Shown piece by piece: positions 23,541 through 29,880 of a stretch of 63,715 nt of DNA; the stretch's first letter is position 1; every line of letters begins with the position of its first letter. The stretch comes from Cytophagales bacterium. Its GTDB lineage: Bacteria > Bacteroidota > Bacteroidia > Cytophagales > UBA9547. The notes below the pieces were generated by a model. The model saw only the letters and a program-made list of their open reading frames with translations, was not told where the DNA came from and did not search any database. Made by a program: the position numbers and the translations under genes. The stretch covers positions 1 through 63,715 of the forward strand of contig JAAFIH010000030.1 of assembly GCA_013297755.1 (NCBI GenBank), written 5' to 3'.

Positions 23541-25955
23541 ATGACAACGCCTGATATCCACCAAACCTCTTTAAATATTCAAAAATCAATGCTTGTAGTT
23601 AAGCGTGATGGTCGTAAAGAATCGGTTAAATTCGATAAAGTTACTGCACGTATCGAGCGATTGAGTTATGGCTTGGATATGAATTTTGTAGATCCAGTAG
23701 AAATATCAAAAAAAGTAATCACAGGCATTTACGATGGTATTTCCACCCAAGAATTGGATAATTTGGCTGCCGAGCAAGCTGCTTCGCTTACTACTCGCCA
23801 TCCTGATTATGCTATATTGGCCGCTCGTATTGCTGTATCTAACTTGCATAAATTGACAAGTAAGTCTTTTTCTAACACTATGAAAAGACTATATACCTAC
23901 GAAGATCCCAAAACTGGCGAAAATGCTTCTTTATTATCAAAAGAAACGTATGAGGTAATACGCAAAAATGCTGCTTTGTTGGATTCAAGTATTATATATG
24001 AAAGAGATTTTAATTACGATTATTTTGGATTCAAGACTTTAGAAAAATCTTATTTACTCAAATTAGATGGCAAAATAGTAGAGCGTCCACAACACATGAT
24101 TATGCGAGTGGCAGTTGGCATTCATGGCGATGATTTAGAATCAGTGGTGGAAACATACAACTTGATGTCGGAGAAATGGTTTACCCACGCCACCCCAACA
24201 TTGTTTAATGCAGGTACTCCAAAAGCACAACTTTCTTCGTGTTTCTTACTTACTATGCAGCAAGATAGCATTGATGGTATTTATGATACACTCAAGCAAT
24301 GTGCCAAAATATCGCAATCTGCTGGTGGGATAGGTTTGAGCGTACATAATGTGCGAGCCACTGGCTCTTATATCAAAGGAACCAATGGTACTTCTAATGG
24401 AATTATACCAATGCTTCGTGTTTTTAATGATACAGCACGCTATGTAGACCAAGGAGGGGGCAAACGCAAAGGTGCTTTTGCAGTGTATTTAGAACCTTGG
24501 CATGCCGACATTTTTGAGTTTTTGCAACTCAAAAAGAATCATGGAAAAGAAGAAATGCGTGCCAGAGACTTATTTTATGCCCTTTGGACGCCTGATTTGT
24601 TTATGAAACGTGTAGAAGATAACGATGTATGGTCGCTATTCTGCCCCAATGAATGTCCTGGTTTGTCGGAAGTATATGGCGATGATTTTGTAAAATTATA
24701 TGAAAAATATGAACGTGAGGGCAAATATCGTAAGCAAGTAAAAGCCCAAGATTTATGGTTTGAGATTGTAGAATCACAAATAGAAACAGGCACTCCTTAT
24801 ATGTTATACAAAGATGCCGCTAACAAAAAATCGAATCAGAAAAATTTGGGTACCATAAAATCGTCTAACTTGTGTACCGAAATTATGGAATACACCTCAA
24901 AAGACGAAATTGCAGTGTGTAATTTAGCATCTTTGGCATTACCAAAATATGTGATTGATGGAAAATTTGACCACAAAAAGTTATTTGATGTAACCTATCA
25001 AGTTACAAAAAATCTCAACAAAATAATAGATATAAATTACTATCCTGTAGAAGAGGCTCGTAATTCAAATATGCGTCATCGCCCCATAGGTATAGGTGTG
25101 CAAGGTTTGGCAGATACATTCATATTGTTGCGTATGCCATTCGAGTCACCAGAAGCTCAGGGACTTAACAAAGATATTTTTGAGACTATTTATTTTGCGG
25201 CCATGACAGCCTCCAAAGATCAAGCCATAAAATATGGTGCCTACGAATCTTTCAAGGGGTCGCCAGTATCGAAAGGTATTTTTCAGTTTGATATGTGGGG
25301 GGTAACACCAACCTCAAATCGCTGGGATTGGGACACACTTCGCAAAGAAGTAAAAAAACATGGCGTAAGAAATTCGCTTTTATTGGCTCCAATGCCTACG
25401 GCATCTACCGCTCAAATTTTGGGAAATAACGAATCTTTTGAACCATATACATCAAATATTTATAAGCGAGAAGTACTTTCTGGTGCTTTTGCAGTGGTAA
25501 ACAAACATTTGTTAAAAGATTTGATTAAGTTAAACTTATGGAATGACAATATCAAAAACAAATTGATGTCGGCCAATGGTTCTGTTCAAAATATCAAAGA
25601 AATACCTCAGCATATCAAGGATATTTATAAAACAGTGTGGGAAATTAAGCAAAAAACAATCATAGACATGAGTGCAGATAGGGGAGCTTATATTTGCCAA
25701 AGTCAAAGTTTGAATATATACATGACAGAGCCAAATTTTGGCAAAATGACTTCTATGCACTTTTATGCTTGGAAAAAAGGCCTCAAAACAGGTATGTACT
25801 ATTTGAGAACCACAGCAGCTGCCGATGCTATTAAATTTACTGTCGAAAAACAAGCACAATTATCACTAACCCCAGTCATCAGCGATGAGCAGAAAATGGC
25901 CGATTTAGCTTGTTCGCTCGACAACCCAGAGGGATGTGAGGCTTGTGGGAGTTGA
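23541..25955 (+). CDS. nrdA: Ribonucleoside-diphosphate reductase, alpha subunit (class I)
   Basis: 804 residues. N-terminal ATP-cone (about 15-105, starting [17 protein letters not shown]) for allosteric control by ATP/dATP, then the ten-stranded barrel. Catalytic cysteines: AQLSSCFLL near 233, the thiyl-radical site SNLCTEI near 445, and the redox-active C-terminal tail CEACGS. It reduces NDPs to dNDPs together with the radical-generating beta subunit, NrdB. No nrdB lies on either side, which is unusual. Followed by 97 bp without a clear terminator. Confidence 0.94.
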
Positions 25956-26052: not shown

Positions 26053-26325
26053 ATGGAAGATAAGGAAAAAAGAGATAGAGTTTCAGATACGTGTAAAGAA
26101 CAAATTAAATTAAGGTTTGAATTTTTAAGAATTTGGATCTTTTTCTTAGCAGCAGTTGGTTCTGGTACAATTTCTCTAGCAATAAAAACTAAAATTGACC
26201 AAAAAGAATCAATTGTTGTAGTTGTTGGATTTATATTTTGTATGTTTATCCTCACAATGTTGTTTTGGGTAATCAAGAAAATCTTTTATTACTTAAACGA
26301 ACTAAAAAAGTTAGAATCATGCTAG
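26053..26325 (+). CDS. Small membrane protein, unknown
   Basis: 90 residues: a charged N-terminus (MEDKEKRDRVSDTCKEQIK), two hydrophobic helices (about 25-45, IWIFFLAAVGSGTISLAI; about 55-78, VVVVGFIFCMFILTMLFWVI) and a short basic tail. I do not recognise the family. A TAnnTTTG match (26044-26051) ends one base before this ATG; if it is the promoter, the transcript would begin at or inside the start codon. Its stop overlaps the start of a second tiny membrane protein, so the two look like one unit, upstream of the restriction-modification genes but 344 bp away from them. Confidence 0.6.
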   Translation: MEDKEKRDRVSDTCKEQIKLRFEFLRIWIFFLAAVGSGTISLAIKTKIDQKESIVVVVGFIFCMFILTMLFWVIKKIFYYLNELKKLESC

Positions 26326-26432
26326 GAACTATAATTATTATCGCATTTGGAGTTATGATGTCAGCTCTTGTATTATATATGGGATATATGTCAAGTTTTG
26401 CAGATAGAACTACCACTTTTGATTCAAAATAG
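26319..26432 (+). CDS. 37-residue membrane protein, unknown
   Basis: Starts at an ATG that overlaps the last codons of the previous gene (ATGCTAG), giving MLGTIIIIAFGVMMSALVLY then a short polar tail: a single transmembrane helix. The overlap argues for coupled expression. Function unknown. Confidence 0.5.
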   Translation: MLGTIIIIAFGVMMSALVLYMGYMSSFADRTTTFDSK

Positions 26433-26776: not shown

Positions 26777-27778
26777 ATGAATTCAAAAAAAACATTTATT
26801 GATTTATTTTCTGGTGCTGGTGGGTTTTCAAAAGGGTTTGAAAATGCTGGATTTGAAAATATTTTCTCGATAGATGTTGAACCTAATTTTTGTGGAACAT
26901 ATAAAGCAAATTTTTCTAATCATTTATTGATTCAAAAAAATATTTCTGAGTTAAAAGAATCTGAAATCAAAGAATTAATAAAAAATAAAGAGGTTGATGT
27001 AGTAGTTGGTGGCCCTCCTTGCCAGGGTTTTAGTATGGCAGGCAATATAGGTCGAACATTTGCAGAAGATGCTAGAAATCAACTTTTTAAAGAATTTGTA
27101 AGGGTTGTAGCTATTGTGAAACCTCAATGTTTTATAATGGAAAATGTGGCTCGATTATACACTCATAATAATGGAAAAACAAAGGAGGAAATTATTAATC
27201 ACTTCAATAAAATAGGATACCATGTAGATTGTAAGATTTTAAATTTTGCAGATTATGGCGTTGCTCAAGTCAGAAAAAGAGTACTTTTTATTGGACACAA
27301 GAAGTCGAAAAAAATAATATTTCCTGAAAAAACAGTTTCTAAATACAAATCAATTTCCTCAGAAATAGAAAAATATCCTGCATTGGAATCTGGACAAAAG
27401 TCAAATATTCCAAATCATGTAGCCATGAAACATTCTTCTCAAATGCTTAATAAAATGAGTTTTGTGCCAGATGGTGGAACAAGGATTGCTATTCCAGACG
27501 CATTAAGACCCAAAACAGGGGATGTAAGAAAATACATTAGATACAAAAGTGATGAACCATCGGTATGTGTAACTGGAGATATGCGAAAAATATTTCATTA
27601 CAATCAAAATCGTGCATTGACAGTAAGAGAATTAGCCAAAATTCAAACCTTCCCAGACGATTTTATTTTTAAAGGTTCTACCATTTCACAACAACAACAA
27701 GTTGGAAATGCAGTTCCGCCATTGATGGCAGAAATTTTAGCTAAAAATATTTTAAAAATGATGGAAAATGATTCATAA
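26777..27778 (+). CDS. DNA (cytosine-5-)-methyltransferase
   Basis: 333 residues with the ordered motifs of m5C methyltransferases: I DLFSGAGGFSKGF, IV GGPPCQGFS (catalytic Cys near residue 81), VI MENVARL, VIII AQVRKRVLFIGHK, a target-recognition stretch, IX RALTVRELAKIQTFP and X QQQVGNAVPPLMAEILA. It methylates cytosine in the recognition site of a restriction-modification system. It overlaps the following adenine methyltransferase gene by 11 bp. Confidence 0.93.
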   Translation: MNSKKTFIDLFSGAGGFSKGFENAGFENIFSIDVEPNFCGTYKANFSNHLLIQKNISELKESEIKELIKNKEVDVVVGGPPCQGFSMAGNIGRTFAEDARNQLFKEFVRVVAIVKPQCFIMENVARLYTHNNGKTKEEIINHFNKIGYHVDCKILNFADYGVAQVRKRVLFIGHKKSKKIIFPEKTVSKYKSISSEIEKYPALESGQKSNIPNHVAMKHSSQMLNKMSFVPDGGTRIAIPDALRPKTGDVRKYIRYKSDEPSVCVTGDMRKIFHYNQNRALTVRELAKIQTFPDDFIFKGSTISQQQQVGNAVPPLMAEILAKNILKMMENDS

Positions 27779-28820
27779 ATTTCCTACCATTAATTTTATA
27801 GGTAACAAGGAAAAAATTGCTCCCTGGATTTGTGATAATTTTCCAAAAGAAGCAAATACTATTTTTGACGCTTTTTCAGGTGGTTGTTCGGTAAGTTATG
27901 AAGCAAAGCAACGTGGCTATACTGTTATCTCAAATGATGTTTTAAAAATCAATAGCACTATTTCTAAATATCTAATTGAAAACAATTCGGAAATTTTAGA
28001 TTTTGATGATATTAAAATGATTGTAACTGGCGAACCATTCGAGGGTTATATGACTGAAAACTATGCTGATAAATTTTTTTTCAAAAATGAATGTATGGAA
28101 CTTGATTTATACCGAAAAAATATTGGAAAATTATCTTCTGACTATAAAAAAAGTATAGTTTTTGCATTATTGCGTAGAGCAATGATTCGTAAAATGCCTT
28201 ACTCCAGATTTAATATTAATTGGGATAAAATCGTTCAGTTACGTGATGAAAATTATAGCTACGAAAAGTATAAACGTAAAAGAGCGTATCATAACAAAAG
28301 TTTCAAAACGCATTTCTTAGACAATGTGCTTGAATACAATAATGCTGTTTTTGATAATAAAAAAGCTAATATTAGTCTAAATTGTGATGTTTTTGATTTG
28401 ATAAAAAATATAAAAGCTGATATCATTTATCTCGACCCGCCATATACAGGCACAATGAATAACTATTTCGAATTTTATGGACTTTTTGATGAATACATAA
28501 CTTCAGAAAAACAATCACCAATAGAAAATGATTTTATCAATAAAAAAACATCCTATCAATTATTTGAAAACTTGTTTTCTAATCTTCAAAATTTTAAGTA
28601 TTGGATTTTGAGTTACAACAACTCATCTATTCCAAACAAAGAGCAACTTTTAGATTTATTAAATAAATATGCTAAAGATGTTCATGTAATTGAGCGAAAA
28701 CATGATTATAAAATTACAGGAAGAGATAATAAGGAAACAAACAAGGAATATTTATTTATTGCCAAAAATCCTTCTTTTGAATCCACCTTAATAAAACAAT
28801 ATGAAAGTGCAGAATTATGA
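27768..28820 (+). CDS. DNA adenine methyltransferase, D12 class
   Basis: 350 residues, alpha-class (Dam/D12-type) N6-adenine methyltransferase: opening INFIGNKEKIAPWI, the SAM-binding motif DAFSGGCSVSYEAKQRGY and the catalytic DPPY in DIIYLDPPYTGTMNNYF near residue 222. The GNK-start and FSGG motif are the D12 family hallmarks. It overlaps the cytosine methyltransferase by 11 bp and the endonuclease gene by 20 bp. Two methyltransferases of different chemistry usually mean that the recognition sequence is asymmetric and each strand needs its own enzyme. Confidence 0.9.
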   Translation: MIHKFPTINFIGNKEKIAPWICDNFPKEANTIFDAFSGGCSVSYEAKQRGYTVISNDVLKINSTISKYLIENNSEILDFDDIKMIVTGEPFEGYMTENYADKFFFKNECMELDLYRKNIGKLSSDYKKSIVFALLRRAMIRKMPYSRFNINWDKIVQLRDENYSYEKYKRKRAYHNKSFKTHFLDNVLEYNNAVFDNKKANISLNCDVFDLIKNIKADIIYLDPPYTGTMNNYFEFYGLFDEYITSEKQSPIENDFINKKTSYQLFENLFSNLQNFKYWILSYNNSSIPNKEQLLDLLNKYAKDVHVIERKHDYKITGRDNKETNKEYLFIAKNPSFESTLIKQYESAEL

Positions 28821-29880
28821 AGATTATTGGAGTTTAACACTTGCTTTTACTGATTTTAATGGGACAAAATTTTTAAATGTACTTCAAGCATGTGTTGATT
28901 TTATTGATAAGCATAAAACAGAAGAATATTCTGAAGAAAAATATGCTCGATTGCAAAATGAAATACAAGTATTTGCAAAAATAGACCTCATCTCTATTCG
29001 AAAAGCCATAAATCAATTGGTCAAAATGGGCTTTATAGATTCTTTACTTCTAGGTTGTCATACTAACACGTTGGATTATCTTAAAGCCAAAACTAATAGA
29101 AAAAGAAATTCCCTATTTTCAAAAATAATTTATACCAATTCAAGCTTTAATCGCTCAATCACAAATGATTCTAAAATACATCAAATAAACTTTTTGATCA
29201 AAACTCTTGTAGAAAATGGTAAACTATCTAAAAAAGAAATTATTGCATTAATGTTGGTTGACATTGAAGCTATTAAAAAAGGCTATTTAGATAAAACAGA
29301 ACTTTCTTTTTTTGAATCCAAAGCACAATTAAGTGGTTTTATTGATAGAAAATATAATCAAATTGGTTATTTATTCAATATTTTGAGCAAACTAGACGAT
29401 GTGGTTTTTGTAAATGATGAACTCTATTTTACTGAAGATGCTAAACGAATTTTTGGTGAAAATTTAGAAGTTTCAACTAAAAAACGAGATCCTTATTTAC
29501 ATTTATTGTTCAAAAACCAATTAAGAGACGAAAGTTTTGAGTATTTCAAATCAGAAAAATGTATGGTCGAAAAATTAGCATTTCCAGTTTTAATCGCCAG
29601 CCATATTAAGCCATTTATAAAGTCTAATGACGATGAGGCTTACGACCCCAACAATGGCATTTTATTGAGCCGAAACATGGATTCACTTTTTGACTTAGGC
29701 TATATCACTTTTGATGATTTTGGAAATATTATTTCAACAAAAAAACTACCACAAGAGATAATTTCACATTTGAAATCATATAAATTAGATGTTGAATTCT
29801 TAAACCAAAAACGAAAAAAATATTTAGCTTTTCATAGAAAGGAAGTTTTTGAAAAACGATTTAATTCTTCTAATTACTAA
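28801..29880 (+). CDS. Type II restriction endonuclease, HNH family
   Basis: 359 residues. The C-terminal third holds an HNH_2-type nuclease motif: LIASHIKPF near residue 267, then DPNNGILLSRNMDSLFDLGY and ITFDDFGNIISTKKL. The N-terminal two thirds match nothing I know and should contain the DNA-recognition region. Position directly after, and overlapping, two methyltransferase genes makes it the cognate endonuclease. Known HNH type IIS enzymes with both m5C and m6A methyltransferases include HphI and MnlI, a fair model for this system. Confidence 0.85.
   Translation: MKVQNYEDYWSLTLAFTDFNGTKFLNVLQACVDFIDKHKTEEYSEEKYARLQNEIQVFAKIDLISIRKAINQLVKMGFIDSLLLGCHTNTLDYLKAKTNRKRNSLFSKIIYTNSSFNRSITNDSKIHQINFLIKTLVENGKLSKKEIIALMLVDIEAIKKGYLDKTELSFFESKAQLSGFIDRKYNQIGYLFNILSKLDDVVFVNDELYFTEDAKRIFGENLEVSTKKRDPYLHLLFKNQLRDESFEYFKSEKCMVEKLAFPVLIASHIKPFIKSNDDEAYDPNNGILLSRNMDSLFDLGYITFDDFGNIISTKKLPQEIISHLKSYKLDVEFLNQKRKKYLAFHRKEVFEKRFNSSNY

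What the first reader, a model, noticed from the sequence alone, without database searches (positions are those of the whole stretch)
26777..29880. Two-methyltransferase HNH restriction system, probably asymmetric (type IIS-like)
An m5C enzyme, an m6A enzyme and an HNH nuclease are encoded by overlapping genes. Two different methylation chemistries with one nuclease is the pattern of systems with asymmetric sites, such as HphI and MnlI. The recognition region of the nuclease (about residues 1-260) matches nothing I know, so the site could be new. No controller gene is visible.
Basis: partly seen in the sequence, partly recalled or inferred. Interest (0 to 1): 0.55.

Follow-up and report, generated by a model that had tools for sequence, protein, structure and literature searches.

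The report
HphI-type (GGTGA) restriction-modification operon
This is a three-gene bacterial defence operon that most likely marks its own DNA at the sequence GGTGA with two different chemical tags and cuts unmarked foreign DNA nearby, an ordinary relative of the known HphI and gonococcal NgoAXVI systems.

Summary
The proposed class, an asymmetric type IIS-like system, is well supported; the hint of an unknown recognition region and a new site is not. The nuclease matches a known type II restriction-enzyme family over its whole length (PADLOC, 9e-128). All three proteins are 55-60% identical, in the same order, to one gonococcal locus, by its make-up NgoAXVI, whose published methylome is 6mA on GGTGA and probable 5mC on the complement (PMC6789123). 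GGTGA is depleted in three carrier genomes of this genus (observed/expected 0.67, 0.67, 0.75) and not in two family members without the system (0.97, 0.98): a modest, pre-specified test. The nuclease may be a tandem winged-helix reader, weakly like BpuJI, joined to an HNH cutter with Asp at the third catalytic position. New member of a known kind; low interest. A side finding, no CGNCG at all in the sampled DNA of the genus, is stranger than the assigned one.

The parts
26777..27778 (+). M1: C5-cytosine DNA methyltransferase (333 aa), predicted to methylate a C on the TCACC strand
   Evidence: PF00145 2.6e-78; TIGR00675 dcm 1.6e-72; 60% identical to the gonococcal m5C enzyme in L021; PCQG and ENV motifs visible in the sequence (motif names recalled)
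27377..27616 (+). Probable target-recognition region of M1 (residues 201-280, between motifs VIII and IX; limits inferred)
   Evidence: Identity to the gonococcal enzyme 0.53 and 0.75 in the two 40-residue blocks; mean identity to 22 relatives 0.65 and 0.80
27768..28820 (+). M2: D12-class N6-adenine DNA methyltransferase (350 aa), predicted to methylate the A of GGTGA; overlaps M1 by 11 nt
   Evidence: PF02086 5.8e-34; PADLOC PDLC03385 1.9e-142; 57% identical to the gonococcal enzyme; DPPY at residues 223-226
28801..29880 (+). R: type II restriction endonuclease (359 aa); overlaps M2 by 20 nt
   Evidence: PADLOC REase_II PDLC03529 9.4e-128 over residues 3-348; 55% identical to the gonococcal nuclease
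28801..29460 (+). R recognition part (residues 1-220), predicted tandem winged-helix domains
   Evidence: AlphaFold2 models, mean pLDDT 75-76; best whole-length match is the BpuJI recognition domain, Z 7.0 over 187 residues, rmsd 5.1, within the noise range stated by the tool; Foldseek alone gave no significant match
29560..29715 (+). R HNH nuclease core (residues 254-305); proposed active site H268, N285, D294
   Evidence: PF13391 2.4e-9; VcaM4I 6yex phmmer 1.6e-15; H268, N285 and D294 invariant in 22 of 22 aligned sequences

Best explanation
A complete type IIS restriction-modification operon of the HphI/NgoAXVI kind that most likely recognises 5'-GGTGA-3'/5'-TCACC-3'. M2 makes 6mA in GGTGA, M1 makes 5mC on the complementary strand, and R reads the same asymmetric site with an N-terminal double winged-helix module and cuts both strands a short distance to one side with its C-terminal HNH domain (8/7 nt for HphI, recalled). 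Shown here: gene content, order and overlaps, family matches, orthology of all three proteins to one gonococcal locus, genus-level depletion of GGTGA. Inferred: the exact site, which C is methylated, the cut distance, the His-Asn-Asp active site and the winged-helix reading mode.
For: Families. Orthology: M1 59.6% over 329 alignment columns, M2 56.6% over 334, R 55.3% over 360, to gonococcal L021, same order and strand. L021 is the only place found for R and for M2 in each of the two gonococcal records. The gonococcal methylome paper says three type II systems contain 6mA enzymes; of these only NgoAXVI consists of a 5mC enzyme, a 6mA enzyme and a restriction enzyme, and it shows 6mA on GGTGA in 25 of 25 strains and probable 5mC on the complement (PMC6789123, passages). 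PMC7973814 (passages) describes NgoAXVI likewise and cites Gunn & Stein 1997, whose title calls the gonococcal type IIS system S.NgoVIII homologous to HphI; that paper was not held, and that S.NgoVIII is NgoAXVI is my reading. The probable M1 recognition region is about as conserved as the rest of M1. GGTGA o/e 0.67 (z -4.7), 0.67 (z -3.8), 0.75 (z -1.8) in carriers against 0.97, 0.98 in non-carriers; rank 8 of 501 word classes in the contrast.
Against: No methylome or cleavage data exist here. 55-60% identity does not prove the same site. The GGTGA depletion is one genus against two genomes, from contigs already known from hits; CGNCG and GTSAC are depleted far more in the same genomes, GGTAA is also low in G000 (0.80, z -6.5) though not in G002 (1.0), and GATGA, the word expected from deamination, is not enriched in G000 (0.91). 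The N-terminal fold match is weak (Z 7.0) and Foldseek's best hit for that part is an unrelated protein at E 0.35. VcaM4I has His on either side of the Asp that I propose as third catalytic residue (positions 292 and 295 here), and this family lacks both. HphI itself could not be compared directly. The two meningococcal papers assign the m6A and m5C labels to opposite loci.
Confidence: 0.84

Rival explanations
1. The same architecture with a different, possibly undescribed, asymmetric site: a drifted member of the HphI family.
For: R identity is only 55% to the gonococcal enzyme, and identity in M1 block 201-240 is 0.53. Another HNH system with m5C and m6A methyltransferase domains, HpyAV, reads CCTTC (PMC2816704, passages).
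Against: Three separate DNA readers (M1, M2, R) would have to drift together. GGTGA is depleted in the carriers, while CCTTC is not in G000 (0.95). HpyAV and Hin4II share 48% R identity and the same site (PMC2816704), so 55% is compatible with an unchanged site.
Confidence: 0.1
2. The nuclease is inactive or only weakly active and the operon now serves as a pair of methyltransferases.
For: The third HNH position is probably Asp294 where HNH_2 members usually have His (recalled). VcaM4I has His next to the matching Asp at two positions; this family has neither.
Against: Asp294 is invariant in 22 of 22 aligned family members and present in the gonococcal copy, so the pattern is a family trait and not decay of this copy; HphI is listed in print as an HNH enzyme (PMC2816704). 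The frame is intact and GGTGA is depleted in carriers.
Confidence: 0.05
3. The nuclease is a modification-dependent (type IV) enzyme that happens to sit beside methyltransferases.
For: Its HNH domain is closest among solved structures to VcaM4I and TagI; TagI is titled modification-dependent, and that VcaM4I is too is recalled.
Against: The VcaM4I match covers only the C-terminal part (from residue 253, from 223). M2 is adjacent in 24 of 24 loci and M1 in 23 of 24. A type IV enzyme that reads these marks would attack DNA that its neighbours methylate.
Confidence: 0.01

Closest known systems
NgoAXVI of Neisseria gonorrhoeae (probably the same as S.NgoVIII), GGTGA
   Same: Gene order m5C - m6A - HNH nuclease; 60%, 57% and 55% identity; methylome 6mA forward, probable 5mC reverse on GGTGA (PMC6789123).
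   Different: A Bacteroidota host (by its relatives) instead of Neisseria; longer M2 C-terminus that overlaps R; site not measured here.
HphI of Haemophilus parahaemolyticus, GGTGA, type IIS
   Same: HNH nuclease (HphI listed as such in PMC2816704); the gonococcal relative is titled homologous to HphI (reference).
HpyAV / Hin4II, CCTTC 6/5
   Same: m5C + m6A chemistry with one nuclease; HpyAV has an HNH site (PMC2816704).
   Different: Different site. In HpyAV the two methyltransferases are one fused protein. Sequence not compared here.
BpuJI and FokI recognition domains
   Same: Predicted tandem winged-helix arrangement: BpuJI 5hlt Z 7.0 over 187 residues, FokI 2fok Z 5.2 over 159 residues.
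   Different: The cleavage domain here is HNH. The match is weak and may be only a common arrangement.

Membership tests
HphI/NgoAXVI-type GGTGA system | m5C enzyme, D12 m6A enzyme and HNH nuclease in one operon | tested here: met
HphI/NgoAXVI-type GGTGA system | Full-length homology of all three proteins to a system with a published GGTGA methylome | tested here: met
   55-60% identity, same order; methylome from PMC6789123; that L021 is NgoAXVI is inferred from its make-up, no locus tag matched
HphI/NgoAXVI-type GGTGA system | Direct homology to the HphI proteins themselves | not tested
   No HphI sequence was at hand; the two papers sought were not held
HphI/NgoAXVI-type GGTGA system | 6mA in GGTGA and 5mC in TCACC in host DNA | not testable with these tools
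   No methylome. Indirect: GGTGA o/e 0.67-0.75 in carriers, 0.97-0.98 in non-carriers
Type IIS restriction enzyme | Asymmetric recognition site | tested here: inconclusive
   Two methylation chemistries imply unlike strands; supported by orthology, not measured
Type IIS restriction enzyme | Cleavage outside the site | not testable with these tools
   Needs purified enzyme
HNH (beta-beta-alpha metal) nuclease | HNH domain | tested here: met
   PF13391 2.4e-9, above the curated cut-off; VcaM4I Z 12.5 over 123 residues, rmsd 3.1
HNH (beta-beta-alpha metal) nuclease | His-Asn-His catalytic triad | tested here: inconclusive
   H268 and N285 invariant; the third position is probably invariant Asp294; VcaM4I has the same Asp but also flanking His residues that are absent here
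BpuJI/FokI-like winged-helix recognition module | Two winged-helix subdomains in the BpuJI arrangement | tested here: inconclusive
   Z 7.0, rmsd 5.1, 187 residues; model pTM 0.50; no significant Foldseek match
Type IV modification-dependent nuclease | Stands without cognate methyltransferases | tested here: not met
   M2 beside R in 24 of 24 loci, M1 in 23 of 24

The most novel reading that the evidence does not exclude
The nuclease is a modular hybrid: a BpuJI/FokI-type double winged-helix reader joined to an HNH cutter with a His-Asn-Asp active site, and in this Bacteroidota branch the site has shifted away from GGTGA.
Probability: 0.07. Interest if true: 0.35.

Novelty: new member of a known kind. 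Interest (0 to 1): 0.13.

Why it matters
It extends relatives of the GGTGA (HphI/NgoAXVI) systems to a wide set of Bacteroidota and some candidate phyla, and gives a testable prediction: host DNA resists HphI and carries 6mA in GGTGA. A fold prediction for this recognition domain (tandem winged helix) is a lead for structure work if it holds. It opens no long-standing question by itself.

Tried and rejected
Unknown recognition region: rejected after the full-length PADLOC match. Pfam and NCBIfam see only the HNH end; NCBIfam MAG4270 (NF045952) matches residues 273-343 below its cut-off. Phage-borne source: no phage record covers 80% of R, 2 records match its C-terminal part; phage M2 relatives are 31% identical at best among 10 records; phage M1 relatives look generic, 39% identical at best among the 15 rows shown of 731 records. 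The lactococcal phage enzyme that protects against HphI (PMC4190342, passages) was not compared.

Foldseek on the N-terminal model alone gave 0 matches at E <= 0.001; its best hit was a UFL1/DDRGK1 chimera at E 0.35, and BpuJI was not among the 50 rows shown. Deamination signature of M1: not seen, GATGA o/e 0.91 in the window's genome. Conserved insertion site: the R and M2 genes of the two other genus members lie on contigs other than their nrdA-like gene, and neither has a full-length match to the downstream DUF255 gene. Literature: searches for HphI/HNH, GGTGA, NgoAXVI, M.HphI and BpuJI; none of the titles listed (20 of 32) names a GGTGA system of Bacteroidota, but only listings and passages were read. 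I did not scan the relatives' flanks for controller genes.

Full report
Observation. The three genes are at the stated coordinates. M1 (26777-27778) overlaps M2 (27768-28820) by 11 nt, and M2 overlaps R (28801-29880) by 20 nt, all on +. M1 is a C5-cytosine methyltransferase (PF00145, 2.6e-78), M2 a D12-class m6A methyltransferase (PF02086, 5.8e-34), R carries an HNH_2 domain at residues 254-305 (PF13391, 2.4e-9). PADLOC type II models match M2 (1.9e-142) and R (9.4e-128, residues 3-348) almost end to end, so the N-terminal region of R belongs to a catalogued family although Pfam has no domain for it.

Relatives. A scan of the GTDB genome contigs gave 24 loci encoding an R relative (44-77% identity): by record title 18 are Bacteroidota, the others a Moraxella, a Sulfurovum, a Helicobacteraceae bacterium and three candidate-phylum contigs. 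M2 lies beside R in 24 of 24 and M1 in 23 of 24; L033 starts inside M2 at a contig end. L022 appears to be the same contig as G002:C359 (both 19,553 bases). In 148 genomes related to the window's own, 20 had any match to R, but only 6 have a match that spans nearly the whole protein (G000, G001, G002, G044, G067, G109); the rest match the C-terminal part.

Which known system. Two gonococcal records carry R at 55.3% over 97% of its length. The locus fetched from one of them (L021) encodes, in order, M1 (59.6% over 329 columns), M2 (56.6% over 334) and R (55.3% over 360). Each of the two records has one place for R and one for M2. The gonococcal methylome paper counts three type II systems with 6mA enzymes; only NgoAXVI has a 5mC enzyme, a 6mA enzyme and a restriction enzyme, and it shows 6mA on GGTGA in 25 of 25 strains and, as the most plausible reading, 5mC at the middle C of the complement (PMC6789123, passages). 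That L021 is NgoAXVI is inferred from this make-up; no locus tag was matched. [quoted passage not shown] that paper, and a DOI I tried from recall for the HphI HNH paper, were not held. In the meningococcal strains of three papers the counterpart shows no GGTGA methylation or is reported broken or off (PMC7973814, PMC7046676, PMC4676702, passages), so the site rests on the gonococcal data.

Specificity. The probable recognition region of M1 (residues 201-280) has identity 0.53 and 0.75 to the gonococcal enzyme in two blocks and mean identity 0.65 and 0.80 to 22 relatives, against 0.40-0.75 and 0.45-0.78 in the other blocks. As an independent test with the word fixed beforehand I counted GGTGA under a maximal-order Markov model: 169 observed against 253.7 expected (both strands, 400,611 bases) in the window's genome with the operon left out (o/e 0.67, z -4.7), 0.67 (z -3.8) in G001 (185 kb) and 0.75 (z -1.8) in G002 (87.5 kb), all carriers; 0.97 in G006 (258 kb) and 0.98 in G004 (120 kb), where no R match and no M2 match was found. 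In the window's genome the loss is seen with A, G or T after the site and not with C, where numbers are tiny (6 against 5.6). In a contrast over 501 word classes GGTGA ranks 8th. Limits: the carriers are one genus, the contigs were those already known from hits, CGNCG and GTSAC are depleted far more in the same genomes, and GGTAA is low in G000 too (0.80, z -6.5).

Mechanism of the nuclease. H268, N285 and D294 are invariant in 22 of 22 aligned sequences; the same Asp stands in the gonococcal copy and in VcaM4I (alignment), but VcaM4I also has His at the positions of residues 292 and 295, which this family lacks. I infer a His-Asn-Asp metal site as a family trait; this needs mutants. AlphaFold2 models have moderate confidence (pLDDT 75.0, pTM 0.39 for R; 76.0 and 0.50 for residues 1-225). 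The HNH domain matches VcaM4I (Z 12.5, 123 residues, rmsd 3.1) and TagI (Z 9.3, 109 residues, rmsd 4.0). The N-terminal part alone is best matched in the second look by BpuJI recognition-domain entries (Z 7.0, 6.6, 6.4 and 6.2 over 181-187 residues, rmsd 5.0-5.5) and at lower rank by FokI (Z 5.2 over 159, rmsd 5.8). These Z values lie within the range the tool gives for chance arrangements, winged-helix regulators score equally over residues 17-102, and Foldseek itself found nothing significant, so the tandem winged-helix reader is a suggestion.

Surroundings. The operon sits between an 804-aa ribonucleotide-reductase-like gene (23541-25955; name recalled from the sequence, not searched in a family library) and a DUF255/thioredoxin-domain gene (PF03190, 2.1e-65). 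The two other genus members carry the full operon on contigs other than their nrdA-like gene. G001 also keeps a 58-bp relic of an R gene tail (84% DNA identity, E 2.8e-13) about 4.5 kb downstream of its nrdA-like gene, which suggests loss and replacement of such operons over time.

Verdict. An operon of intact reading frames of the HphI/NgoAXVI type, very probably type IIS and most likely GGTGA-specific: a new member of a known kind.

Noticed in passing
Whole genome of the window (G000), also G001, G002, G005: CGNCG is absent: 0 in 403,715 bases of G000, 0 in 185 kb of G001 and 0 in 87.5 kb of G002, while CG-CG spacings of 2-6 bases are not depleted. Genome-wide CGNCGAA counts (forward/reverse) are 0/0 in G000 (reversed-pattern control 606/574), 3/1 in G001, 8/3 in G002, 2/4 in G005, and 133-419 per strand in the six other family members. 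No cause found; a word search of papers gave nothing on it among the 10 of 19 listed titles. Worth its own study.
   Followed up: partly
G000, G001, G002 sampled contigs: GTSAC (GTGAC/GTCAC) is at 0.23-0.35 of expectation in this genus and at 1.03-1.06 in G006 and G004; CGCG is also scarce (13 against 100 expected in G000).
   Followed up: partly
L030:5381-6001 and L037:5507-6001: In two loci (Flagellimonas, Hyunsoonleella) an extra ORF (206 and 164 aa as listed) sits between M2 and R. The L037 copy has no Pfam match above cut-off and a stretch (VDDCDMVINSKRVEIKSAT) that resembles a PD-(D/E)XK nuclease core by eye.
   Followed up: partly
L031:3973-5991: In a Gracilibacteria contig, read with code 25 (TGA = Gly), M1 and M2 form one 672-codon frame, like the fused methyltransferase of HpyAV.
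   Followed up: no
L074:5914-5973 (G001 contig C66): Relic of an R gene tail downstream of the nrdA-like gene in G001, beside small ORFs that look RelE-like by eye.
   Followed up: partly
L078:2542-4744 and L079:1951-5524: The same genome holds another M2-like methyltransferase (35% identity) beside a 368-aa ORF, and a cluster of two ORFs that look like m5C methyltransferases by eye with an HNH ORF matched by R and a small ORF: further apparent restriction systems.
   Followed up: no
L021 (NZ_CP119142.1): A 2.17-Mb gonococcal record listed as a plasmid in PLSDB looks by its size like a chromosome.
   Followed up: no
26053-26432: Two overlapping small ORFs upstream of M1 (90 and 64 aa) look like membrane proteins by eye; the first has a sub-threshold match to 8xMP (0.0023), the second was not searched.
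   Followed up: partly
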